Made by a program: the position numbers and the translations under genes | Notes under the pieces: model-generated | The model's input: only the letters and a program-made list of their open reading frames with translations | Database searches by the model: none | Told to the model about the DNA's origin: nothing | Shown here: piece after piece, positions 12,531 to 26,529 of the stretch | How the letters are laid out: the number at the start of each line of letters is the position of its first letter | Numbering within the stretch: position 1 is the stretch's first letter | DNA from: Acidobacteriota bacterium | Lineage (GTDB): Bacteria; Acidobacteriota; Terriglobia; UBA7540 | Direction: 5' to 3' | DNA: 36,266 nucleotides | Assembly (NCBI GenBank): GCA_902812415.1 | Contig: CADDZJ010000039.1 | Coordinates: forward strand, 1-36,266

Positions 12531-13274
12531 TCAAGCGAGGAATCGTGCTGCGGCTTCATCCAGAAACCATGTCACCGTGCCGTTGGAAGGCCTTACGCGT
12601 TGGGCCGGATATAACGTCGATGCATCAGGGGATCGAAGTATCTGGCGCGCAATTTCGGCCTTTTCCGGACCGGCGACCAGGAAGATGATCCGGGCGGCGG
12701 CGTTGAGCACCGGATAAGTCAGCGTCAGACGCCACATGCCCAGCTTCTCAATCCAGTTGGGGCATACGGCCAGTTTCTCTTCTTCAAGAGCCGCTGAGCC
12801 TGGAAAGAGAGATGCCGTGTGGCCGTCTTCGCCAAGTCCCAGAAAAATGAGGTCCAGCCGAGGCCATTTCACGGACGAATCCGCTGTAACGGTCTGAAGT
12901 TCCGCGGCATAGCTTTGTGAAGCCGCGTCGCGGTCAGGTTCTTCAGCAGCCATGCGATGAAAGTGGCCGCTGGGCAATGCAATTTTATCCAGCATCGCTT
13001 CGCGGATCATTCTGTAATTGCTTTCGGCGCTGGTAGGAGGAACGCACCGTTCATCAACCTGAAACAAGTGAACGCGCGACCATGGAATCCGGCTGGAAAA
13101 TTCCTGCGTCGCCAGGAGTTCGTAAAGACTCTTCGGAGTATGGCCGCCAGAGAGCGCAATGGAGAAAGGTCTGCCGTCGGGTTTGATCGGGCCCGTAATT
13201 TCCGCGAGTTGCGCAGCGGCGGCCCGGCTCAGTTCTTCAAGATTTTTGAATATACGAATTTCAGGCGCGGGCAT
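12531..13274 (-). CDS. pgl: 6-phosphogluconolactonase
   Basis: Hydrolyses 6-phosphogluconolactone to 6-phosphogluconate, second step of the oxidative pentose-phosphate pathway. The 247-residue protein is the DevB/NagB-like type, with LSGGHTPKSLYELL (42-55), VDERCVPPTSAESNY and LGLGEDGHTASLFPG, the three signature blocks that bind the phosphorylated substrate. It starts 29 bases after the zwf stop on the same strand, so zwf and pgl are very likely one operon performing consecutive reactions. Confidence 0.95.
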   Translation of the reverse strand: MPAPEIRIFKNLEELSRAAAAQLAEITGPIKPDGRPFSIALSGGHTPKSLYELLATQEFSSRIPWSRVHLFQVDERCVPPTSAESNYRMIREAMLDKIALPSGHFHRMAAEEPDRDAASQSYAAELQTVTADSSVKWPRLDLIFLGLGEDGHTASLFPGSAALEEEKLAVCPNWIEKLGMWRLTLTYPVLNAAARIIFLVAGPEKAEIARQILRSPDASTLYPAQRVRPSNGTVTWFLDEAAARFLA

Positions 13275-13303: not shown

Positions 13304-14857
13304 CTACAGTTCCTGCCATTTGCGCCCATCCCGTTCGATGAAGGCATCGGCCTCCGGAGGGCCCCACGTGCCCGATTCATAGAAGGAAAGCCCTTTCTTG
13401 CCGTCTTCCTTCCAACGGTTGAGCAGCGGCGTGAGCACTTCCCAGGCAAGATCAACAAAATCATCGCGGGTGAAAAGCATGGGATCGCCGAGCATGCAAT
13501 CGAGCAGAAGCGTTTCATACGCGGTGGTGGGCGGCGTCTGGCCAAAAGCATCTTCGTAGTGAAATTCCATGGTCACAGGCCGAATCTGCATTGTGGTGCC
13601 TGGGATTTTGGCGTTGAACATCAAGGACATGCCTTCATCCGGCTGAATGTGGATCGAGAGGTGATTCGGCTCGATGGAAGTGGTTCCCGTGCCTTTAAAC
13701 AGCAGATGAGGCGCCCGACGGAACTTGATGGTGATTTCCGAAATCCGCTTCGGGAGGCGTTTGCCCGAACGCAAATAAAAAGGAACATCAGCCCAGCGCC
13801 AGTTGTCGATGAAAAGCTTCAGCGCTGCGTAGGTTTCGGTGGTGGATTGAGGCGAAACTTTAGGTTCCGAACGATAGGCGGGCAGCTTGTTTCCGTCGGT
13901 CCAACCCTCTACATACTGTCCTCGCACCGCGTACTCGCTCAGCCGGTCAAGCGGGATAGGCCGAATGGCGCGCATCACTTTAGCTTTCTCGTCCCGGACT
14001 GCCCTTGCATCAAAGATGGCCGGAGGCTCCATGGTGATGAGGCTCAGCAGGGAGAGGACATGATTTTGAATCATGTCCCGCACGAGTCCGGCTTCCTCGT
14101 AGTAAGCTCCGCGGTTCTCGACTCCAATCTCTTCAGCCACCGCAATCTGCACGTGATCGATATAACGCCGGTTCCAGAAAGGCTCGAAAATCCCGTTGCC
14201 AAAGCGAAAGACCAGGAGATTCTGCACGGTTTCTTTACCCAGATAGTGGTCAATACGGTAGATTTGATCTTCCTTGAAAACGCTGGTAACGGCCTGGTTC
14301 AGCTCGCGGGCGGATTGCAGGTCTCGTCCGAAAGGCTTTTCAATGACAATGCGCGTCCACGTCTTATTCTGCTCCTTGGGTTCGGCCAGCCCCACGGCTC
14401 CGAGATGATTCACGATGACCGGAAAGAAGCTGGGTGGAGTGGCTAAGTAGAACAGCCGGTTGCCGCTGGTGCCGCGTTGCTGATCCAATTGATCGAGGAG
14501 TTTTTTCAGTTGATCGTAAGCTTTCGCGTCGCCGAAGTCATCGGAGATGTAGTGGACATCCCGGGTGAAAGCATTGACGGCCTCGTGGTCAGAATCCGGA
14601 AGGTCCAGATATTTCTTCACCGCCTTCTGCATCTTGTCGCGGAAACTTTCGTCGGTGTATTGCGTCTTGGCGCAGCCGATCACGGAGAATCCATCGGGCA
14701 GAAGACCAGCCCGCGACAAATAATAAAGCGCGGGCACCAGCTTACGCTCCGTTAAGTCTCCTGAAGCGCCAAAGATCACCATCGCGCAGGGCGCGGGAAC
14801 ACGGTGCTCAGCGGATTTCTCAGCCTGGACGTGTGTCGCTTCCTTCAGTTTAGTCAT
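13304..14857 (-). CDS. zwf: Glucose-6-phosphate 1-dehydrogenase
   Basis: Oxidises glucose-6-phosphate to 6-phosphogluconolactone. Visible motifs are the nucleotide-binding VIFGASGDLTERKLVPALY, EKPFGRDL, and the active-site RIDHYLGKETVQN. The product is 517 residues from the ATG at 14857, which has GAGG upstream; an ATG five codons earlier (14872) lacks a ribosome-binding site. After the second beta strand the sequence is VIGCAKTQYTDESF: many NADP-linked relatives carry Arg where this has Lys, so cofactor choice is not clear-cut. Followed by pgl, preceded by a repeat-filled spacer and tkt. Confidence 0.95.
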   Translation of the reverse strand: MTKLKEATHVQAEKSAEHRVPAPCAMVIFGASGDLTERKLVPALYYLSRAGLLPDGFSVIGCAKTQYTDESFRDKMQKAVKKYLDLPDSDHEAVNAFTRDVHYISDDFGDAKAYDQLKKLLDQLDQQRGTSGNRLFYLATPPSFFPVIVNHLGAVGLAEPKEQNKTWTRIVIEKPFGRDLQSARELNQAVTSVFKEDQIYRIDHYLGKETVQNLLVFRFGNGIFEPFWNRRYIDHVQIAVAEEIGVENRGAYYEEAGLVRDMIQNHVLSLLSLITMEPPAIFDARAVRDEKAKVMRAIRPIPLDRLSEYAVRGQYVEGWTDGNKLPAYRSEPKVSPQSTTETYAALKLFIDNWRWADVPFYLRSGKRLPKRISEITIKFRRAPHLLFKGTGTTSIEPNHLSIHIQPDEGMSLMFNAKIPGTTMQIRPVTMEFHYEDAFGQTPPTTAYETLLLDCMLGDPMLFTRDDFVDLAWEVLTPLLNRWKEDGKKGLSFYESGTWGPPEADAFIERDGRKWQEL

Positions 14858-14931
14858 AGAGGATTTCCTCATTCAGCAGATTGACGATCGGCACGATTAT
14901 TTTGAGTACTGTTATTCCCAATCCTTTACTT

Positions 14932-15141: not shown

Positions 15142-17187
15142 CTACTGGCCCAGCAGTTCGTGGGCTTTCTCGACCACGTGAGTTTTAGTAAATCCCAGCT
15201 TCTCCGCAATCACCTGGTAAGGCGCGGAAGCGCCGAAGCGATTCAGGCCAATCACAGCGCCCTGAGGCCCCACATAACGCTCCCAACCCAGCGGCGAGGC
15301 GGCCTCAATGGCCAGGCGAGCCGTAAAATGCGCCGGGAAAACTTCGTCCTTGTATTTCTGAGGCTGCTTTTCGAAAAGGTCCCAACTGGGCATGCTCACC
15401 ACTCGCGCGGCCAGCCCTTCATTCCGGAGTTGCTCAAAAGCCTCGATAGCCAGGGAAACCTCGGAACCTGTAGCGATCAGCAGCACACCGCGCCCTTTGC
15501 CGGGCGCATCGGCGAGCACGTAAGCGCCGCGGGCGAGACCCTCTGCGGAGGCGTATCGGCTCCTGTCGATAACCGGAAGTTTCTGACGGGTCAGCACGAG
15601 GGCTACCGGGCCTCCCTTATGTTCGATAGCCACTCTCCAGGCCACGGCCGTTTCATTGGCATCGCCGGGGCGAATCAGGCAGAGATTAGGAATGGCGCGC
15701 AGCGAGGGCAGATGCTCGATGGGTTGATGAGTGGGGCCATCTTCACCGAGAAAAACGCTGTCATGCGTGTAAACAAAAATGGAATGCGCCCCCTCCAGCG
15801 CCGCCAGCCGTATGGTGGGCCGCATGTAGTCGGAGAAATTAAAAAAGGTCGCTCCGTAAGCTATCAGCCCGCTCAAAGCCAACCCGTTCACGATGGATCC
15901 CATCGCGTGCTCGCGGACTCCAAAATGCAGATTGCGACCTCCATAGCTGCCCTTTTGAAAGTCTCCGAATCCTTTCAGGTAGGTGTCGGTTGAGGGGTTC
16001 AAATCCGCCGAGCCGCCCACGAGCGTCGGCAAACTCGAAGCGATCGCATTCAAGACTTGCCCGGACGCCTGACGAGTAGCCAGAGAACCGTCAGAGGGCT
16101 TGAAAGTCGGAATTTTGCTTTGCCAGCCTTCAGGAATCTCTCCGCGCACATATCGATCCCATTCCGCCGCAAGTCGCGGATAAGTCCTCTGGTAAGCCTG
16201 AAGGCGGCTTTCCCATTCTTCCTCCAGTTGCGCACCCCGCTCAATCGCTTTGCGAAAATGGGCGAGGGCCTGAGGTGGAATATAAAACGCGGGTTCCACA
16301 GGCCAGCCTAAATTCTGCTTGGTCAGCTTCACTTCTTCTTCACCTAACGGGCTGCCATGGGCTTGATAAGAATCCTGCTTATGAGGACTGCCATAACCGA
16401 TATGAGTGCGAACGATGATCAGTGAGGGCCGCCCTTTTTCTCCCTCAGCAGCCTGCAAAGCTTTCTCCACCGCTTCGAGATTATTCCCATCGGGAACACT
16501 CTGCACGAACCATCCGTAAGCCTCAAATCGTTTCCCGGCGTCTTCTGTATAGGCCCATTCCGTGGGGCCTTCGAGAGAAACCAGATTGCTGTCGTAAAGG
16601 TAAATCAGATTATCCAGGCCCAGATGACCTGCAAGTGATGCGGCTTCGGAAGAGACTCCTTCCATCAGGTCGCCATCGCTGACTAAAGCATAAACTTTGT
16701 AGTCCACCAAGGTGTGGTCAGGACGATTGAAATGAGCTGCCAGATACTTTTCGGCAATGGCCATGCCAACGCCATTACCAAAGCCCTGGCCAAGAGGGCC
16801 GGTGGTGGTCTCGATTCCGTCATCCAGCGAGTATTCAGGGTGTCCGGGAGTCTTGCTGCCCCATTGGCGGAATTGCTTGATGTCATCCAGAGAAATGTTG
16901 TACCCCGTAAGATGCAACAGGCTGTAAAGCAGCATGCAGCCGTGTCCGGCGGAGAGAACGAAGCGATCGCGATTAGGCCACCTGGGATTGCGGGGATTGT
17001 ATTTCAAAAATTTGGTCCACAGCACATAGGCCATGGCCGCCGCCCCCATGGGTAAGCCCGGATGGCCTGAATTGGCTTTTTGAACCGCGTCCATCGAGAG
17101 GCATCGGATGGTGTTGATCGCGAGTTGATCAAGCTCGCTCTGAGAAAGAACCTCTTTTTGAGAATTGGTTACGATTTCGCTTGGCAA
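15142..17187 (-). CDS. tkt: Transketolase
   Basis: Thiamine-diphosphate enzyme moving two-carbon units between sugar phosphates in the non-oxidative pentose-phosphate branch. The 681-residue protein has [32 protein letters not shown], the cofactor-binding [20 protein letters not shown] (GDG...N type), [10 protein letters not shown], and [13 protein letters not shown] containing the catalytic Glu of the pyrimidine domain. All three domains are present. Minus strand, upstream of zwf-pgl with a 284-base repeat-bearing spacer. It is divergent from gnd. Confidence 0.96.
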
Positions 17188-17549: not shown

Positions 17550-18956
17550 ATGAGCAAACAACATCTCGGAGTGATCGGCCTGGGCGTGATGGGGCGCAAT
17601 CTGGCGTTGAACGCGGAAAGCAAAGGTTTCTCAGCGGCAGGTTTTGACGTAAATCAGGAAAAGGTGAAACAGTTTGAGGCGGTGGGTCAGGGGAAGAAGA
17701 TCGTGGCCGCGCGCACGTTGAAAGACTTTGTAGGAGCGCTGGAGACGCCGCGCCGCATCTTGATGATGGTGCCAGCCGGCGCTCCGGTGGATGCGGTTTT
17801 GAAGGATCTCCGTCCATTCCTCGACCGGGACGATATCGTCATCGATGGGGGCAATTCTTATTTCAAAGACACCGAACGACGTGCCAAAGAGTTGGAAACG
17901 GCTGGCCTTCGCTTCTTTGGCATGGGCGTAAGCGGAGGAGAAGAAGGTGCGCTTCACGGTCCGAGCTTGATGCCGGGGGGTCATGAGGAGTCCTACCGGC
18001 ATCTGGAAGCCGTTCTCACGCGCATGGCGGCGCAGACGGAAGATGGCGCCTGCTGCACTTATCTCGGCCCCGGAGGCGCTGGCCACTACGTGAAGATGGT
18101 TCATAACGGAATTGAGTACGGCATCATGCAGGCCATCTGCGAGGCCTACGATCTTCTGAAAAACGCCCTGAACCTGAGCGCCACAGAATTGCGCGATATC
18201 TTTGCGGATTGGAACCGCGCGGAACTCAATTCCTTCCTGGTTGAAATCACCGCGCTCGTTCTCAATAAAATTGACCCGGAAACCCGCAAATCCCTGGTGG
18301 ATCTCATCCTGGATGAGGCGGAACAGAAAGGAACCGGCAAGTGGACCGCTCAAGACGCGATGGATATCGGAGTGGCCGTCCCGACCCTTTCTATCGCAGT
18401 CTCAACACGGACGCTTTCCGCGGAGAAAGACGAGCGGGTAGCGGCCTCGGCGATTCTGAAAGGACCTGATGGCCGATTCTCTGGCGATAAAAACCAGCTC
18501 ATCGACCATGTGCGCAAGGCGCTCTACGTGACCATGATTGTTTGCTACGCACAAGGGTTTGAACAATTGCGCGTGGCTTCATCAGAGTATCAGTACTCTC
18601 TGAAATTGCCCGAAATCGCCCGAATCTGGAAAGGCGGGTGTATTATTCGTTCCAGGATACTGGACCCCATCTCGACGGCTTTCCGCGCCAATGCTTCTTT
18701 GCAGAATCTGATGCTGGATTCTCACTTCAGCCAAATTCTTAATGCTCAACTCGGGAATCTGCGCGAAACCATAAAACTGGCGATTGATCTGGGCGTTTCC
18801 ACTCCGGTCTTCAGCGCATCGCTGGCCTATGTGGATGGATACCGGCAAAAGCGCTTGCCGGCCAACCTGCTCCAGGCGCTGCGGGACTGCTTTGGCGCAC
18901 ACACCTATCGCCGGATTGACCGCGAGGGAATCTTCCATACGGAATGGAAACAATAA
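17550..18956 (+). CDS. gnd: 6-phosphogluconate dehydrogenase (decarboxylating), predicted NAD-preferring
   Basis: Oxidatively decarboxylates 6-phosphogluconate to ribulose-5-phosphate. The 468-residue length is that of the long, E. coli-like class. Motifs: GVIGLGVMGRNLALN (7-21), GMGVSGGEEGALHGPSLMPGG, and the active-site GAGHYVKMVHNGIEYG with catalytic Lys and Glu regions; the C-terminal FGAHTYRRIDREGIFHTEW tail is complete. Unusual: at residues 33-35 it has Asp-Val-Asn after strand two (AAGFDVNQEKV), where E. coli and animal enzymes have Asn-Arg-Ser/Thr that hold the NADP 2'-phosphate. An Asp there favours NAD (inference from Rossmann-fold rules). It faces away from tkt and ends at a strong terminator. 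Confidence 0.95.
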   Translation: MSKQHLGVIGLGVMGRNLALNAESKGFSAAGFDVNQEKVKQFEAVGQGKKIVAARTLKDFVGALETPRRILMMVPAGAPVDAVLKDLRPFLDRDDIVIDGGNSYFKDTERRAKELETAGLRFFGMGVSGGEEGALHGPSLMPGGHEESYRHLEAVLTRMAAQTEDGACCTYLGPGGAGHYVKMVHNGIEYGIMQAICEAYDLLKNALNLSATELRDIFADWNRAELNSFLVEITALVLNKIDPETRKSLVDLILDEAEQKGTGKWTAQDAMDIGVAVPTLSIAVSTRTLSAEKDERVAASAILKGPDGRFSGDKNQLIDHVRKALYVTMIVCYAQGFEQLRVASSEYQYSLKLPEIARIWKGGCIIRSRILDPISTAFRANASLQNLMLDSHFSQILNAQLGNLRETIKLAIDLGVSTPVFSASLAYVDGYRQKRLPANLLQALRDCFGAHTYRRIDREGIFHTEWKQ

Positions 18957-19661: not shown

Positions 19662-21449
19662 GTGATTTTGCGCGTGCTGTTGGCGGTTCTTGTTGCGGCT
19701 TCGTCGGGCTGGGCATTCCAAACGCCGGATGGGGCTGCCATTTTTCAACAACACTGTGATGTGTGCCATCGGAAGGGCAGCGGGACACGGGCGCCGTCGA
19801 CTGAGGTGCTTCAGCAGATGTCGCGCGACTCGATTGTGCAAACTCTCGAAACCGGCGTTATGAGAGAACAAGGCGCCAAACTGACCCCTGCGGAGCGACA
19901 AGCGGTGGCGGCGTATCTTTCCCATGCTAAAGCTCCCGTCTCAAGCACTCGCCCTGGTTTTTGCGCCGTAAAATCCGATCCCCTGCTTGATGATCCCGGC
20001 TGGAACGGCTGGGGAGTTGATGTTGCGAACAGCCGCTTTCAGCCAGCGGCAGTGGCAGGGCTCAGCCGCAATCAAATCCCGAAACTGAAACTCAAGTGGG
20101 CCTTTGGCTTTCCAGGGGCTTGGGCGACGTTTGGCCAGCCGACGGTGTTTGGAGGACGCGTTTTCGCGGGCAGCGAAGATGGCACGGTTTATTCACTTGA
20201 TGCGCGAACGGGTTGTATCTACTGGACGTTTAGAGCCCCCTCCACCGTCAAGACGGCTGTCACCATCGGGTTCGGAGGCCGCATCGCCTATTTTGGCGAC
20301 GTGAGCGGCAACATCTATGCCGTGGATGCCGCCAACGGCTCGCTCTTGTGGAAAGTTCACGTTGATCCGCACCCCACAGCGCGCATTACAGGATCCCCGG
20401 TCCTTTTCGATGGTCGGCTTTACGTCCCCGTCTCTTCGGGCGAGGAGGGTGCGGCGATGGACCCCAGGTATCCGTGTTGCACTTTCCGCGGCAGCGTCGT
20501 GGCCCTCGATGCGCAGACAGGCAAACAGATTTGGAAGGCCTACACCATTCCGCAGCCGGCTCACCCAACCATGCGCAGCACCGCAGGGGTGCAAATGTGG
20601 GGGCCTTCCGGAGCAGCGGTGTGGTCGCCGCCCACTATTGATCCAAAACGACGCGCGATCTATGTAGCGACCGGCAACGGCTATTCTGACCCCCCTAGCC
20701 CCTATTCGGATGCGGTCATTGCATTTGATCTGGACTCCGGCAAAATGCTTTGGTCACAACAACTTACGCCGAGTGACCGCTGGAATATTGCATGCATCGC
20801 ACCGACCAAGGCGAACTGTCCTGATAATCCGGGGTCTGACTTTGATTTTGGATCGCCACCGATTCTCAAAACGCTGCCAGATGGACGCCGCCTGCTGATT
20901 GCGGGGCAGAAGTCCGGCGTAATCTACGCGCTCGACCCTGACCAGCAAGGCCGGATCGTTTGGCAAACACGGATCGGCAAAGGTGGGCCGCTTGGAGGAA
21001 TTCAATGGGGCGGCGCGGCGGACAAGAAACGGGTTTATTTCCCATTGTCCGATTGGAATGACTCGAATCCGGCCATGGGAGGAGGACTATTTGCTCTGCA
21101 AGCTGCTACAGGAAAGAAAGCCTGGTACGCGCCTCCTCCCAAGCCGGATTGCCTCAAGCAAGTCGGCTGCAACGCCGCACAGATGGCGCCAGTCACCGTC
21201 ATTCCCGGTGTTGTGTTTTCCGGCTCGCAAGATGGCCATTTGCGCGCCTATGATGCTCGAACCGGAAAAGTGATTTGGGATTTTGATACCCTGCAGGAAT
21301 TCAAGACGGTGAACGGAGCGGAGGCCCACGGCGGATCGATGAACGCTACGGGCCCTGCCATCGTTAACGGCATGCTTTATGTGGATGCAGGCTATACGAA
21401 CGGCGTGGCCGGTAACGTCTTGCTTGCATTTTCGGTAGATGGAAAATGA
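19662..21449 (+). CDS. Cytochrome c / PQQ-type beta-propeller dehydrogenase
   Basis: A 595-residue exported protein: signal peptide (MILRVLLAVLVAASSGWA), then a short class I cytochrome c domain with heme motif CDVCH (32-36) and a probable axial Met near 67. The remainder is an eight-bladed quinoprotein-like propeller with repeated W-blade patterns such as GTVYSLDARTG, GNIYAVDAANGSLLWK, GSVVALDAQTGKQIWKAY and GHLRAYDARTGKVIWDF. This arrangement resembles polyvinyl-alcohol dehydrogenase, a periplasmic PQQ enzyme passing electrons to its own heme. The substrate cannot be inferred. The GTG start at 19662 follows AGAGGA. A nearby upstream ATG (19639) runs into a stop. It stands alone as a transcription unit. 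Confidence 0.85.
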   Translation: MILRVLLAVLVAASSGWAFQTPDGAAIFQQHCDVCHRKGSGTRAPSTEVLQQMSRDSIVQTLETGVMREQGAKLTPAERQAVAAYLSHAKAPVSSTRPGFCAVKSDPLLDDPGWNGWGVDVANSRFQPAAVAGLSRNQIPKLKLKWAFGFPGAWATFGQPTVFGGRVFAGSEDGTVYSLDARTGCIYWTFRAPSTVKTAVTIGFGGRIAYFGDVSGNIYAVDAANGSLLWKVHVDPHPTARITGSPVLFDGRLYVPVSSGEEGAAMDPRYPCCTFRGSVVALDAQTGKQIWKAYTIPQPAHPTMRSTAGVQMWGPSGAAVWSPPTIDPKRRAIYVATGNGYSDPPSPYSDAVIAFDLDSGKMLWSQQLTPSDRWNIACIAPTKANCPDNPGSDFDFGSPPILKTLPDGRRLLIAGQKSGVIYALDPDQQGRIVWQTRIGKGGPLGGIQWGGAADKKRVYFPLSDWNDSNPAMGGGLFALQAATGKKAWYAPPPKPDCLKQVGCNAAQMAPVTVIPGVVFSGSQDGHLRAYDARTGKVIWDFDTLQEFKTVNGAEAHGGSMNATGPAIVNGMLYVDAGYTNGVAGNVLLAFSVDGK

Positions 21450-21800: not shown

Positions 21801-23372
21801 TTGACTGACATAGACCAAACATTCCGCGAGCATGAACTCCTTTTCACCGGGGCCAACGGCTTCCTGGGCAAAGTCATCCTCGCGCTTCTTCTGGATCGAT
21901 TTCCAAATTTCAGGCACTTGCACATCCTGTTGCGTCCGAGCGGAGAGTTGCCGCCTGCCGAGCGATTTTTCAAAGACGTACTCAACTCGCCTGCGCTGGC
22001 CTCCGTTACAGAGCACAGGGGCGACGGGTTTCCGCGCAACAGGATCAGCATCTGGTCCGGAGACATCAGCGCGCCTGATTGTGGTCTGGAACCGGAAGAT
22101 ATCGACCGCATGGCTGGCCGCGTAGACCTGATTCTCAACTGCGCTGGCCGTGTGGACTTCTTCCCCGCCATCGATGATTCTTTCAGCTCCAACGTGGACG
22201 GCGTCGAAAACATCGCCGATTTGGCGAAGCGCCTGGGCGCCAAACTGTTGCATGTCTCCACCGCTTTCGTCTGCGGCGAGGCCGACGGGCTGATTGAGGA
22301 GTCCGAACCAATTCTGGGTTACTATCCCCACCGCCGCGGTCCGGACGATCGAAGTTTTGATCACCGCGAGGAATTGCGTCACGTACGCGAATTGATTCGC
22401 CAGATCTACGAATCAAGTGACGCCAATCGCCGTGAGGATCGGGCGCGCCGCTCCCGTGAACTGGTCCAGCGATTGGTCGCTCTGGGAAAGCAGCGGGCCG
22501 CGAATTGGGGATGGGTGAATACTTACACTTACTCCAAGAGCCTGGGAGAGCAGATTATCCAGGCGGCGGAAGGCCTCGATTCTGCCATCGTGCGTCCGGC
22601 CATTGTGGAAAGCGCCTGGCGATTCCCTTTCCCGGGATGGATTGAAGGCGGGCGCACCGCAGCTCCTCTAGTCTTGATGGCGTTGGGCGGGCTGAAAGAT
22701 TGGCCGGTGCGGGAAGACGCTCCGCTTGAAGTCATTCCGGTGGATATGGTCGCATCGGCCATCCTCACAGTTTCAGCGCTCTTGCTTCAAAATCGCCACG
22801 AGCTGGTTTATCAGCTTGGCTCTGCGGACATGAATCCCTTCCCGCTTGGCAGTATCGTGACCCTGCTGGATGCTGAAGCCCGCAAACGCAAGAACGGAGA
22901 AGAAGTCTGGAGTCGCGGCTTGACCGATTGGCTCGCCGGAATGCGTCGCGGCTCCCGCATCCGTTTTGTGTCGTCTGAGGAGGCACAGAATCGACGGCTG
23001 AAATTACGAAGAGATATTGCCCGCGCTGAGCGCTGGCTCTCAGGAGCCGGGCGCGTTCTGGAAAAAATGGGTTTGCCGGGAGAGCGCTGGATGGGAGGCT
23101 TTAACACCGAATTGCGCAAACTCGACCTTCAGGCGAAATTCCGGGAGCAAACCCTGGACCAGTACCTTCCCTTTGTGCTCCAAAATCGATACATTTTTGA
23201 ATGCGAGAATATCCGCATCGCACACTCAATGCTTTCCAAGGCAGATCAGGAGTTGCTGCCGTGGCGCCCGGAAAATATTAACTGGAAGGAGTATTGGACA
23301 AAAAACCAGATCGAAGGCATTGAAAATTGGGTCCAGCCGGAAGCCGTGCGTGAGTGGACTTTCAAAATCTAG
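21801..23372 (+). CDS. Fatty acyl-CoA reductase-like SDR (male-sterility NAD-binding family)
   Basis: The 523-residue protein has an extended-SDR Rossmann start, LLFTGANGFLGKVILALLL (about 13-31). The ILNCAGRVDFFP segment and the active-site YTYSKSLGEQI (Tyr-xxx-Lys) follow, then VRPAIVESAWRFPFPGWIEG, all typical of the NAD_binding_4 family (PF07993) that reduces acyl-thioesters to aldehydes or alcohols. A basic helical C-terminus (about 400-500) has no motif I recognise. The start is TTG at 21801 with GAGGAG about 11 bases upstream; the true start may be a few codons away. First gene of the lipid cluster. It likely reduces the acyl chain loaded by the next gene product (inference). Cofactor NADPH or NADH not determined. 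Confidence 0.8.
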   Translation: MTDIDQTFREHELLFTGANGFLGKVILALLLDRFPNFRHLHILLRPSGELPPAERFFKDVLNSPALASVTEHRGDGFPRNRISIWSGDISAPDCGLEPEDIDRMAGRVDLILNCAGRVDFFPAIDDSFSSNVDGVENIADLAKRLGAKLLHVSTAFVCGEADGLIEESEPILGYYPHRRGPDDRSFDHREELRHVRELIRQIYESSDANRREDRARRSRELVQRLVALGKQRAANWGWVNTYTYSKSLGEQIIQAAEGLDSAIVRPAIVESAWRFPFPGWIEGGRTAAPLVLMALGGLKDWPVREDAPLEVIPVDMVASAILTVSALLLQNRHELVYQLGSADMNPFPLGSIVTLLDAEARKRKNGEEVWSRGLTDWLAGMRRGSRIRFVSSEEAQNRRLKLRRDIARAERWLSGAGRVLEKMGLPGERWMGGFNTELRKLDLQAKFREQTLDQYLPFVLQNRYIFECENIRIAHSMLSKADQELLPWRPENINWKEYWTKNQIEGIENWVQPEAVREWTFKI

Positions 23373-23676: not shown

Positions 23677-26529
23677 ATGATGCCAACTCTTCCTAAACAG
23701 GTGGAAGCTGCCTCCGTGGAAGGTCAAATCCTGGAGGTTGTGCGCGAGCTTCTGCTGGAGCTTGGTTCGGTGCGGGCGGCGGAAAGCCTCACGATGGATT
23801 CGTTGCTCGACCGCGACCTGGGGTTGGGCAGCCTTGAGCGTGTTGAGCTTCTGGTGAGGTTGGAAGCGCGCTTCAAAATTCGTCTGCCGGAAGAGGCGGC
23901 GCAAGAGGCTGAGACGCCGGCAGATTGGGCCCGAACGATCTTCGATGGAACCCGGCCCTCCAGCCGAAGCGAGCGTTACCGCATCGTTCAGCCTTCGCGG
24001 GATGCTCCCGAAGCGCCCGCCTCCGCAAAAAGCTGGCCTGAAGCGCTTCGCCACCACGCGCAGATCGAGCCAGACCGTGTGCAGATTCATCTTCTGGAAG
24101 AAGATTCCGGCCGCGACATCACTTACGGACAATTGCTTGAGACGGCCTCAAGGGTGGCAGCCGGGCTGATTGACGCCGGTTTACAGCGGAACGACACCGT
24201 GGCGATCATGCTGCCCACATGCGCCGATTTCTTCTATGCCTTTTTCGGCGTCATGTTGGCGGGCGGCATTGCGGTTCCCATCTATCCTCCGGCGCGGGCC
24301 GATAAGATTGAGGAATACGTTCGCCGCCAGGTCCTGATCCTGAAGAATGCGGAAGTCCGCTTCCTGATCAGTTTTGATCGTGTTCGCGCGGTTTCCCAGA
24401 TCATGCGAGTGAGCATCCCGAGTCTTCTGGAAGTAACCAGCGTCGAGGCTTTGTGCCGGTCTGGTGCGAAGCCGCCCTCCCGTGGCCTTGAACCCTCTGA
24501 AATCGCTTTTATCCAATACACCTCTGGCAGCACGGGTGATCCCAAAGGAGTGGTGCTGACCCATGCAAACGTGCTGGCCAACGTGCGCGGCATTGGCTGG
24601 TCTGTGAACTTTCGCCCGGATGACTACGTGGTCAGTTGGCTGCCTCTCTACCACGATATGGGCCTGATCGGTTCCTGGCTTTTCAGCGTCTATCATGGCG
24701 CGCCGATCACGGTGATGTCGCCGCTCGCATTTTTGAGCCGCCCTGAGCGCTGGCTCTGGGCCATGCACGATTCACGAGGCTCGCTTTGCCCGGCGCCCAA
24801 TTTTTCCTACGAATTGTGCGCCCGGAAAATTCCGGACGAAGCGATTGAAGGACTCGACTTAAGCCGCTGGCGCGTGGCGATTAATGCGGGCGAAGCCGTA
24901 TTGCCTGATACTCTGACGCGCTTTGCCGCCCGCTTCAAACCCTACGGGTTCCGCGCTGAGAGCTTTGTGCCCTGTTACGGGCTGGCCGAATCCTCCGTGG
25001 CGCTCACGTTTACGCCTATGAACCGGGCTCCGGTGATTGACGTCATCCGTCGCGATCTTTTTGAGGCGGAAGGCAAAGCAGAGCCCGCAGGGGAGGGCAA
25101 GAACAACGTGCTGCGATTCGTTGCCAATGGCCGCCCCATGCCCGGCCACGAGGTGAAACTCCTGGATGATCAGGGCCGGGAATTAGGGGAGCGCGTCCAG
25201 GGCCGCATCTTCTTCCGCGGCCTCTCGCGCACTGCCGGCTACTATCGCAATCCTAAGGCCACCGCCGCGGTCATCACGTCGGATGGCTGGATGGATTCCG
25301 GCGATCTGGGTTATTGGGCGAATGGGGAACTTTACGTCACAGGCCGCCTGAAAGATTGCATTATCAAGTCAGGGCGCAACATCATCCCGCAGGAAATTGA
25401 GGCGGCGGCGGCGGAAGTTCCGGGCGTCCGTAAAGGTTGCGTGGCGGCTTTCGGCGCCCTCGACCCGCAAACCGGCACCGAGCGGCTCGTGGTGGTGGCG
25501 GAAACACGCGCGAAGGCGTCGGATGAGCTAGAGCGCATAGAAGAAGGAATTATCAGGAGTGTCGATTCCGTCCTGGGAATTCCGCCAGACAAGGTGGCGC
25601 TGGTTGCCCCGCAAAGCATCCCCAAAACCAGCAGCGGGAAAATTCGCCGAACGGCAACGCGCGCGCTTTACCTTGAGGGCCGGCTTTCGGGACGTAAACG
25701 CCCACCCTGGATGCAGATTGCGCGCCTGTGGCTCGAGAATCTGGGAAACGGGTTCACGCTCTTTCGCCGGAAGGCCGTGGCTTGGGTGCATCGGGCATCC
25801 CGGCATTCCTATTTTGCCGCCTTGGCCTATCTTGGCGGCACGATGGCCCGCGTTGCAGGCGGGAAGGGAGCCTCTGCTTTCATCATCCGGGTCACGGCTC
25901 GTTGTATCTTGCGCTGGGGCAACCATCAGATTCATCTTGTGAAGAGATCGGAAGTCCCCACGGGCAAGCCAGCCATCTTAATGGCCAATCGCGCTGGGCA
26001 TTTGGATCCGCTCGTCGCGGCGGCGCGCATTCCGTTTCCATTTCGTTTTGCGGATGGGGCAGTGCTTGGCGAACTTCCCTCGCCAGCCGCGTTCCTTCTG
26101 CGGACGCTTGTCGCTTCCCCCCTGGGTGAGCATCGAGAGCCGCCAGGTGGAACCATGCGTCAGCGAATTGAGCGTTGCTTGAAGGGGCAATTGAGCGTGG
26201 TAGTGCTTCCGGAAGGGCCGGTCGGCGCTCCTCCGGCGCGCTCACGCTTCCGGCTGGACGCGCTACATGCGGCTCTTGACACAACCAGCCCCATTTATCC
26301 GGTTTTATTCCATGGGACTGAAGGGCTGGCGTGGCCGGATCGGAAATCGGAAGCGAGAACGCATAGCTCTGAGATCGGGATGGACGGTTCGGATGTCGAT
26401 GCCGCCAGTAACAGTCGGTCTCCGCAAGTTATTATCGGTGAAGCGATCCGCCCCTCGGCGCACAGCCATTATGATATGATCCAGCTACGTGAGCGCATCC
26501 GTGAAGCGCTGGCAAAGCTGTCGCGCTAA
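23677..26529 (+). CDS. ACP / fatty-acid-adenylating / PlsC-like acyltransferase fusion
   Basis: The 950-residue protein has three parts. Residues 15-88 are an acyl-carrier domain with Ser52 in DLGLGSLERVEL, the expected phosphopantetheine site (usually DSL, here GSL). Residues 110-690 are an ANL adenylating domain of the fatty-acyl-AMP-ligase type: YTSGSTGDPKGV (281-292), WLPLYHDMGLIG, INAGEAV, CYGLAESS, GDLGYW, and catalytic Lys655 in TSSGKIRR. Residues 760-950 are a PlsC-like acyltransferase with LMANRAGHLDPLV and VVLPEGPVGAPPARSRFR. In motif I the catalytic His of NHx4D is Arg772 (Asp777 is present), a single-base difference (CGC versus CAC). The enzyme could activate a fatty acid onto its own ACP for the upstream reductase. 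No clear Shine-Dalgarno precedes the ATG. Confidence 0.87.
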   Translation: MMPTLPKQVEAASVEGQILEVVRELLLELGSVRAAESLTMDSLLDRDLGLGSLERVELLVRLEARFKIRLPEEAAQEAETPADWARTIFDGTRPSSRSERYRIVQPSRDAPEAPASAKSWPEALRHHAQIEPDRVQIHLLEEDSGRDITYGQLLETASRVAAGLIDAGLQRNDTVAIMLPTCADFFYAFFGVMLAGGIAVPIYPPARADKIEEYVRRQVLILKNAEVRFLISFDRVRAVSQIMRVSIPSLLEVTSVEALCRSGAKPPSRGLEPSEIAFIQYTSGSTGDPKGVVLTHANVLANVRGIGWSVNFRPDDYVVSWLPLYHDMGLIGSWLFSVYHGAPITVMSPLAFLSRPERWLWAMHDSRGSLCPAPNFSYELCARKIPDEAIEGLDLSRWRVAINAGEAVLPDTLTRFAARFKPYGFRAESFVPCYGLAESSVALTFTPMNRAPVIDVIRRDLFEAEGKAEPAGEGKNNVLRFVANGRPMPGHEVKLLDDQGRELGERVQGRIFFRGLSRTAGYYRNPKATAAVITSDGWMDSGDLGYWANGELYVTGRLKDCIIKSGRNIIPQEIEAAAAEVPGVRKGCVAAFGALDPQTGTERLVVVAETRAKASDELERIEEGIIRSVDSVLGIPPDKVALVAPQSIPKTSSGKIRRTATRALYLEGRLSGRKRPPWMQIARLWLENLGNGFTLFRRKAVAWVHRASRHSYFAALAYLGGTMARVAGGKGASAFIIRVTARCILRWGNHQIHLVKRSEVPTGKPAILMANRAGHLDPLVAAARIPFPFRFADGAVLGELPSPAAFLLRTLVASPLGEHREPPGGTMRQRIERCLKGQLSVVVLPEGPVGAPPARSRFRLDALHAALDTTSPIYPVLFHGTEGLAWPDRKSEARTHSSEIGMDGSDVDAASNSRSPQVIIGEAIRPSAHSHYDMIQLRERIREALAKLSR

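What the first reader, a model, noticed from the sequence alone, without database searches (positions are those of the whole stretch)
17550..17670. 6-Phosphogluconate dehydrogenase predicted to use NAD
Seen: residues 33-35 are Asp-Val-Asn (AAGFDVNQEKV), aligning with Asn-Arg-Ser in E. coli Gnd and Asn-Arg-Thr in the sheep enzyme. Known: those residues bind the 2'-phosphate of NADP; an acidic residue at the end of strand two is a mark of NAD specificity. Long-class (468-residue) enzymes are normally NADP-dependent. Zwf here also has Lys where many have Arg. Inference: the oxidative pentose-phosphate branch may feed NADH rather than NADPH.
Basis: partly seen in the sequence, partly recalled or inferred. 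Interest (0 to 1): 0.55.

Follow-up and report, generated by a model that had tools for sequence, protein, structure and literature searches.

The report
NAD-type long-chain 6-phosphogluconate dehydrogenase
This sugar-oxidising enzyme, filed in databases as an NADPH maker, carries what looks like a complete pocket for the other coenzyme, NAD, so in this bacterium and a good part of its relatives one step of the pathway probably yields NADH instead, although nobody has yet measured it.

Summary
The 468-residue 6-phosphogluconate dehydrogenase at 17550-18956 (+) has Asp33-Val34-Asn35 where E. coli has Asn-Arg-Ser. It also carries Gly12, Gly31 and Pro75, a set largely shared with short-chain NAD-type relatives and nearly absent from Asn-type long-chain enzymes. 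In its own family 16 of 18 orthologues keep an acid at 33; the other two, nested inside, carry Thr-Arg-Ser and Thr75, an apparent switch back towards NADP. In the phylum sample 40 of 110 long-chain enzymes read are acidic at 33, on several separate branches. Published mutants support the residue logic. NAD preference is likely; no kinetics exist. The wider inference is half supported: Zwf keeps a cation at its NADP site, and its Lys/Arg variation does not follow the Gnd type. Best picture: one NADPH (Zwf) plus one NADH (Gnd), with a membrane transhydrogenase also encoded. NAD-preferring 6PGDHs are known; new here is the full NAD set on the long-chain form, recurrent in one phylum (probably Acidobacteriota) and named NADP-dependent by the library.

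The parts
17550..18956 (+). gnd: long-chain 6-phosphogluconate dehydrogenase, 468 aa, the only PF00393 match found in the genome assembly
17577..17594 (+). codons 10-15, dinucleotide fingerprint GLGVMG with Gly12 (Asn-type long-chain enzymes mostly have Ala12)
   Evidence: Gly12 in 37 of 38 acid rows with a residue there (5 more have none), 12 of 85 Asn rows
17640..17654 (+). codons 31-35, Gly31-Phe32-Asp33-Val34-Asn35: end of strand beta-2 and the loop that in NADP enzymes (Asn-Arg-Thr/Ser) binds the 2'-phosphate
   Evidence: predicted strand 29-32 and helix 36-45 in the model
17772..17774 (+). codon 75, Pro (MVPAG) in place of the Lys of Asn-type enzymes (MVKAG)
   Evidence: Pro in 36 of 43 acid rows, 3 of 85 Asn rows; Pro in 11 of 11 short-chain rows aligned
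13304..14872 (-). zwf: glucose-6-phosphate dehydrogenase; Lys69 at the position of E. coli Arg50, a cation is kept
12531..13274 (-). pgl: 6-phosphogluconolactonase
15142..17187 (-). tkt: transketolase, between zwf and the divergent gnd; the same order in L379 and L380

Best explanation
The gene encodes a genuine long-chain 6-phosphogluconate dehydrogenase whose coenzyme pocket is of the NAD type. Asp33, at the end of strand beta-2, would accept hydrogen bonds from the adenosine ribose hydroxyls of NAD and repel the 2'-phosphate of NADP. Val34 removes the arginine that clamps that phosphate, and Gly12, Gly31 and Pro75 complete a pocket like that of short-chain NAD enzymes. The enzyme should turn 6-phosphogluconate into ribulose 5-phosphate, CO2 and NADH. 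Since Zwf keeps an NADP-type cation, the oxidative pentose-phosphate branch would give one NADPH and one NADH per glucose 6-phosphate, and PntAB could make NADPH from NADH. Shown: sequence, conservation, intact substrate residues, one PF00393 copy in the assembly, a transhydrogenase locus. Inferred: NAD preference, NADH output in the cell, the role of PntAB.
For: (1) D33-V34-N35 replaces N-R-S without a gap. (2) Positions 12/31/33/34/75 fall into two main states in 130 long-chain rows: G-G-D-notR-P in 29 (plus 5 whose position 12 is missing from the matched stretch) and A-V-N-R-K in 60. (3) The short-chain class shares most of the set: Gly12 and Pro75 in 11 of 11 rows aligned, Asp33 in 8 of 11; Gnd2 of Mycobacterium tuberculosis, named NAD(+)-dependent in one PDB record, reads GLGRMG..YDHD..MVPAG. 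(4) In the window's family an acid at 33 stands in 16 of 18 rows; the two with Thr33 also have Arg34, Ser35 and Thr75 and lie inside the acidic clade (99/94 and 100/98 support); a partial sequence from a third genome of that genus code reads the same (L369). (5) Experiments in print: T. maritima N32D raised Km for NADP 460-fold, N32D/R33I/T34I to 69.5 mM, and the best mutant N32E/R33I/T34I reversed selectivity about 64,000-fold; Moorella A30D/R31I/T32I reversed it 4,278-fold; PMC8900737 says Asp in place of that Asn hinders the 2'-phosphate (passage). (6) Ser128, Gly129, Gly130, Lys182, His185, Asn186, Glu189, Tyr190, Lys260, Arg287, Arg445 and His451 are invariant in 18 of 18 family rows. (7) It is the only PF00393 match in the assembly, and no short-chain 6PGDH passes its cut-off there.
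Against: No kinetic data for any Asp-type long-chain enzyme were found. T. maritima N32D alone kept similar Km for both coenzymes (2.3 and 4.0 mM), so Asp by itself need not give strict NAD use, and Asn35 could still hold a phosphate. NCBIfam names the protein NADP-dependent, by family score and not by test. The link between PntB and Gnd type is not robust to kinship. Too few independent tree pairs exist to prove that positions 12, 31, 34 and 75 change together with 33 (8 pairs, median sign-test p 0.125 to 0.5). The assembly is 95.9% complete in 261 contigs, so a second 6PGDH could be missing.
Confidence: 0.8

Rival explanations
1. Dual-specificity enzyme: Asp33 weakens NADP binding but both coenzymes are used, and cell levels of NAD and NADP decide.
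For: T. maritima N32D has Km 2.3 mM for NADP and 4.0 mM for NAD; some bacterial 6PGDHs are dual (PMC4518329 passage; PMC8900737 passage). Partial types with D-R-E or D-R-D, Val31 and Lys75 exist in the phylum.
Against: The window enzyme has the whole set (no Arg34, Gly31, Pro75), not the partial one; combined mutants in print switch strongly.
Confidence: 0.15
2. Still an NADP enzyme, with the 2'-phosphate bound by other residues.
For: Library names; Zwf next door keeps an NADP-type cation; Asn35 is polar.
Against: Asp33 at the key position; Arg34 and Lys75 are both absent; the apparent NADP-type reversal inside the family has Arg34 and lacks Asp33.
Confidence: 0.04
3. A 6PGDH paralogue with another substrate.
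For: Only the divergence: best identity seen outside the family is about 56-59%.
Against: Substrate residues invariant in 18 of 18; locus shared with zwf, pgl and tkt; the only PF00393 match in the assembly.
Confidence: 0.01
4. One reading: the whole oxidative branch makes NADH, Zwf included.
For: Zwf Lys69 replaces the usual Arg.
Against: Lys keeps the charge. In the family it occurs with acid-type (7 genomes, the window included), Asn-type (2) and T-R-S-type (2) Gnd, while 5 acid-type genomes have Arg. In the phylum sample the other 30 Zwf rows from genomes with an acid-type Gnd have Arg (2 of the 30 are from G218, which has both Gnd types; the Zwf of G014, G175, G330 and G371 was not read, and six acid-type genomes gave no Zwf match).
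Confidence: 0.08

Closest known systems
Long-chain dimeric 6PGDH, NADP-dependent (EC 1.1.1.44; E. coli Gnd 3FWN, Geobacillus stearothermophilus 2W8Z/2W90)
   Same: Length, two-domain make-up, substrate residues, about 53-55% identity, best structural matches
   Different: Coenzyme pocket: Gly12, Gly31, Asp33, Val34, Pro75; the commonest state of Asn-type rows is Ala, Val, Asn, Arg, Lys
Short-chain tetrameric NAD-preferring 6PGDH (Gluconobacter oxydans 6XEQ/10GW, Gluconacetobacter diazotrophicus 6VPB, M. tuberculosis Gnd2 8IHE)
   Same: GxGxxG, Asp at the end of beta-2, Pro in MVPAG/MLPAG/MLPCG; short-chain rows of the same phylum include VGFDFN, very like AGFDVN
   Different: About 330-360 aa without the long second half; a separate clade (100/100). 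The two acetic-acid-bacterium enzymes keep Arg after the Asp
B. subtilis NAD-preferring 6PGDH isozymes (Zamboni 2004, as cited in PMC4518329)
   Same: NAD preference in a natural bacterial 6PGDH
   Different: Isozymes beside an NADP-preferring one; from memory the long-chain GntZ has Asn-Tyr-Thr, not Asp, at this place (recalled, not checked)
Engineered NAD-using T. maritima and Moorella 6PGDH
   Same: Acid plus hydrophobic residue at the same loop positions
   Different: Made in the laboratory; here natural and recurrent

Membership tests
Long-chain 6PGDH (TIGR00873 / NF006765) | Full-length match over the curated cut-off | tested here: met
   630 and 661 bits against cut-offs 427 and 413
Long-chain 6PGDH (TIGR00873 / NF006765) | Substrate and catalytic residues (Ser128, Lys182, His185, Asn186, Glu189, Tyr190, Lys260, Arg287, Arg445, His451; the list is from memory of the family) | tested here: met
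   invariant in the window and 17 orthologues
Long-chain 6PGDH (TIGR00873 / NF006765) | Dimer with swapped C-terminal tail | not testable with these tools
   only a single-chain model; pTM 0.78, several stretches between 126 and 183 weak
NADP-dependent 6PGDH (EC 1.1.1.44) | Asn-Arg-Thr/Ser at 33-35 binding the 2'-phosphate | tested here: not met
   Asp-Val-Asn
NADP-dependent 6PGDH (EC 1.1.1.44) | Lys in the MVKAG stretch of the coenzyme site (probably sheep Lys75; numbering not checked) | tested here: not met
   Pro75
NADP-dependent 6PGDH (EC 1.1.1.44) | Higher kcat/Km with NADP | not testable with these tools
   no kinetics
NAD-dependent short-chain 6PGDH (TIGR00872) | Match over the curated cut-off | tested here: not met
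   272 bits on the protein, 223 on the genome; cut-off 297
NAD-dependent short-chain 6PGDH (TIGR00872) | NAD-type pocket (GxG, Asp33, Pro75) | tested here: met
   this says that it works like one, not that it belongs to the class

The most novel reading that the evidence does not exclude
Coenzyme choice of the long-chain 6PGDH is evolutionarily labile in this phylum (probably Acidobacteriota). A complete NAD set, much like that of short-chain enzymes, sits on several separate branches (retained from an NAD-using ancestor or gained repeatedly), and one genus has switched back to an NADP-like pocket. A large share of the phylum would then run a split-coenzyme oxidative pentose-phosphate branch (NADPH from Zwf, NADH from Gnd) that family-based annotation records as two NADPH.
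Probability: 0.5. Interest if true: 0.55.

Novelty: new variant of a known kind. Interest (0 to 1): 0.42.

Why it matters
Family-based annotation takes long-chain Gnd to make NADPH. If this reading holds, NADPH budgets drawn from such annotation are wrong by one NADPH per turn of the oxidative branch in many members of the phylum. The family also offers a natural set of Asp-type, Glu-type and Thr-Arg-Ser enzymes for testing how coenzyme specificity switches without loss of activity.

Tried and rejected
Zwf Lys69 as support for NAD: rejected. In the phylum sample the window is the only Lys among 89 Zwf rows (85 Arg, 2 Ala that are one gene read twice as L209 and L280, 1 Ser). In the window's own family 13 of the 25 rows read have Lys and 12 Arg; acid-, Asn- and T-R-S-type Gnd all occur on the Lys side.

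PntB as the partner of NAD-type Gnd: at first sight strong (30 of 39 acid-only genomes against 20 of 65 Asn-only genomes, Fisher p 6e-6; two mixed or other genomes left out). It is carried mainly by two families: without them full-set genomes 8 of 11, partial-acid 2 of 5, Asn/other 18 of 45; full-set against Asn/other p 0.09. Seven independent tree pairs: same way 2.8, other way 1.0 on average, median p 0.625. In the window's family 12 of 16 acid-type, 4 of 5 Asn-type and 2 of 3 T-R-S-type genomes have PntB (my count). Not claimed as evidence.

Independent-pair tests of the linked positions (8 pairs on starred branches), mean same way / other way / tie: Gly12 3.7/0.2/4.1, Gly31 2.0/0/6.0, not-Arg34 3.4/0.1/4.4, Pro75 3.2/0.3/4.5. 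The direction agrees, none is significant, so the linkage is described and not proved free of kinship.

One origin of the NAD set: holding the rows together is disfavoured (AU p 0.00135 on 81 rows; 1.1e-6 on 63 rows with the T-R-S pair added). The groups were defined by residues seen in the same alignment, the loop columns were left out of the trees, and long branches remain. I take several separate branches as likely and the direction (gain or retention) as open: the basal forks with a short-chain outgroup are unresolved.

Entner-Doudoroff dehydratase: three edd-like matches, all far below the cut-off, so no classical Edd was shown. Isocitrate dehydrogenase family: four matches over cut-off; their coenzymes were not analysed. 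Structure model: mean pLDDT 80.2, weak in parts of 126-183, TM about 0.66 to long-chain 6PGDH crystals; only the secondary structure around residue 33 was used. No acidobacterial 6PGDH coenzyme study was seen in the listings (listings only). Searches covered 6PGDH coenzyme preference; no natural Asp-type long-chain enzyme was seen in those listings, several of which were capped below the number of papers found, nor in the passages I read. The paper of Maturana et al. 2021 could not be read.

Full report
Observation. The ORF 17550-18956 (+) encodes 468 residues starting MSKQHLGVIGLGVMGRNLALNAESKGFSAAGFDVNQEKV. It scores 661 bits against NF006765 and 630 against TIGR00873, both named NADP-dependent. 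Asp33-Val34-Asn35 (codons 17646-17654) align without a gap with Asn-Arg-Ser of E. coli (L189). The sheep triplet Asn-Arg-Thr and its contact with the 2'-phosphate are described in PMC8900737 (passages seen).

Whose genome. The tools give the window's genome and its relatives without names. This is an inference.

The gene in its genome. A PF00393 search of the assembly (4.84 Mb, 261 contigs, 95.9% complete) gives one match, this gene. A search for the short-chain NAD-type family (TIGR00872) gives four matches, all below its cut-off, two of them this gene. zwf, pgl and tkt lie next to it on the other strand. In two relatives read at this place zwf, tkt and a divergent gnd keep that order (L379, L380; in L380 about 3 kb separate zwf and tkt).

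A set of residues, not one. I aligned 130 long-chain enzymes: the window, 109 from a sample of 396 genomes of the phylum (loci) and 20 of the 80 loci of a named-genome scan. Residue 33 is Asp or Glu in 43, Asn in 85, Ala and Ser in one each. In the phylum part alone this is 40 acid, 69 Asn and 1 Ala of 110 rows from 106 genomes; acid rows occur in 14 of the 31 family codes. The acid rows carry Gly31 in 35 of 43 (Asn rows 0 of 85), Gly12 in 37 of the 38 that have a residue there (Asn rows 12 of 85), and Pro75 in 36 of 43 (Asn rows 3 of 85). Of 130 rows, 29 read G-G-D-notArg-P at 12/31/33/34/75, five more read the same with position 12 missing, and 60 read A-V-N-R-K. The short-chain class has Gly12 and Pro75 in 11 of 11 aligned rows and Asp33 in 8 of 11; some of it reads VGFDFN, close to the window's AGFDVN. 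Gnd2 of M. tuberculosis, called NAD(+)-dependent in one PDB record, reads GLGRMG, YDHD and MVPAG at these places.

The window's own family. In 61 genomes (60 relatives and the window's own) 17 full-length orthologues at 64-80% identity were read. With the window, 18 rows: Asp 15, Glu 1, Thr 2 at residue 33; Gly12 and Gly31 in 18; Pro75 in 16. Arg34 is absent from the 16 acid rows. The two Thr rows (L328, L329) read AGYTRSAER and MVTAG: Thr33, Arg34, Ser35 and Thr75 together. They are nested among acid rows (99/94 and 100/98 support). A partial sequence from a third genome of the same genus code reads the same (L369). The natural reading is a switch back towards NADP. Other genomes of the family carry instead an Asn-Arg-Thr enzyme at about 48-50% identity (L336-L339; partial L370), one of them in the window's own genus code (G397).

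Evolution. Leaving the loop columns out, a 130-row quick tree needs 11 changes between acid and non-acid, at least 8 on starred branches. A careful 70-row tree needs 8, at least 7. Holding the rows with acid 33 and Gly31 as one clade is disfavoured: AU p 0.00135 on 81 rows with a short-chain outgroup and 1.1e-6 on 63 rows. The basal order is open, so an NAD-using ancestor with several losses and repeated gains both remain possible.

What experiments in print say. In T. maritima 6PGDH, N32D raises the Km for NADP 460-fold to 2.3 mM with Km for NAD 4.0 mM; N32D/R33I/T34I gives 69.5 and 3.9 mM; the best mutant, N32E/R33I/T34I, shifts selectivity about 64,000-fold (PMC5090862, parts 1 and 2 of 4 of the text read). 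That paper says NAD-preferring 6PGDHs are rare and have Asp there. In Moorella, A30D/R31I/T32I shifts selectivity 4,278-fold and brings the Km for NAD to 11.9 uM (PMC5009329, passages). PMC8900737 reports a published tree with a long-chain cluster typically carrying Asn-Arg-X and a mainly tetrameric cluster with the NAD-type fingerprint (passages and one section). PMC4518329 says that B. subtilis has two NAD-preferring isozymes and one NADP-preferring (passages).

Mechanism. Asp33 follows predicted strand 29-32 and precedes helix 36-45, the classical place for an acid that binds the ribose hydroxyls of NAD (established knowledge of Rossmann folds). Val34 and Pro75 stand where the commonest NADP-type state has two cations. 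Substrate and catalytic residues are invariant in 18 of 18. I infer an NAD-preferring 6PGDH; the degree of preference is unknown, and Asp alone in T. maritima gave no strict switch.

Pathway. Zwf keeps a cation at the place of E. coli Arg50, whose role with Lys18 is shown in PMC4807051 (passages): Lys69 here. In the phylum sample the other 88 Zwf rows read have Arg in 85, Ala in 2 (one gene read twice) and Ser in 1. In the family 13 of 25 have Lys, with no visible relation to the Gnd type. So the branch most likely gives one NADPH and one NADH. A transhydrogenase locus is present: PntB, the small membrane part and the C-terminal domain of the alpha part beside it (that ORF runs to near the end of the stretch fetched). 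The association of PntB with acid-type Gnd across the phylum (30 of 39 against 20 of 65) is not robust to kinship and is not seen inside the family.

Verdict. The kind is known. The variant, a long-chain enzyme with the full NAD set as the only 6PGDH found, recurrent in one phylum and with an apparent natural reversal, was not seen in the listings of my paper searches, some of which were capped.

Noticed in passing
L328, L329, L369 (genomes G428, G404, G425, one genus code): Thr-Arg-Ser loop with Thr75 inside an Asp-type family: an apparent natural reversal of coenzyme preference.
   Followed up: partly
L336-L339 and L370, genomes of the window's family: An Asn-Arg-Thr 6PGDH at about 48-50% identity in place of the Asp-type enzyme, in one case in the window's genus code: gene replacement or differential loss.
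   Followed up: no
G049 (L283, L254, L045) and G388 (L284, L255, L048): zwf lies beside a short-chain Gnd with VGFDFN while a long-chain Asn-Arg-Thr Gnd lies elsewhere: two coenzyme types of 6PGDH in one genome.
   Followed up: no
window 19662-21449 (+): PQQ-type beta-propeller protein with an N-terminal cytochrome c domain, downstream of gnd.
   Followed up: no
window 21801-23372 and 23677-26529 (+): Fatty-acyl-reductase-like protein (NAD_binding_4) followed by a protein with PP-binding, AMP-binding and acyltransferase domains: possibly a lipid or wax locus.
   Followed up: no
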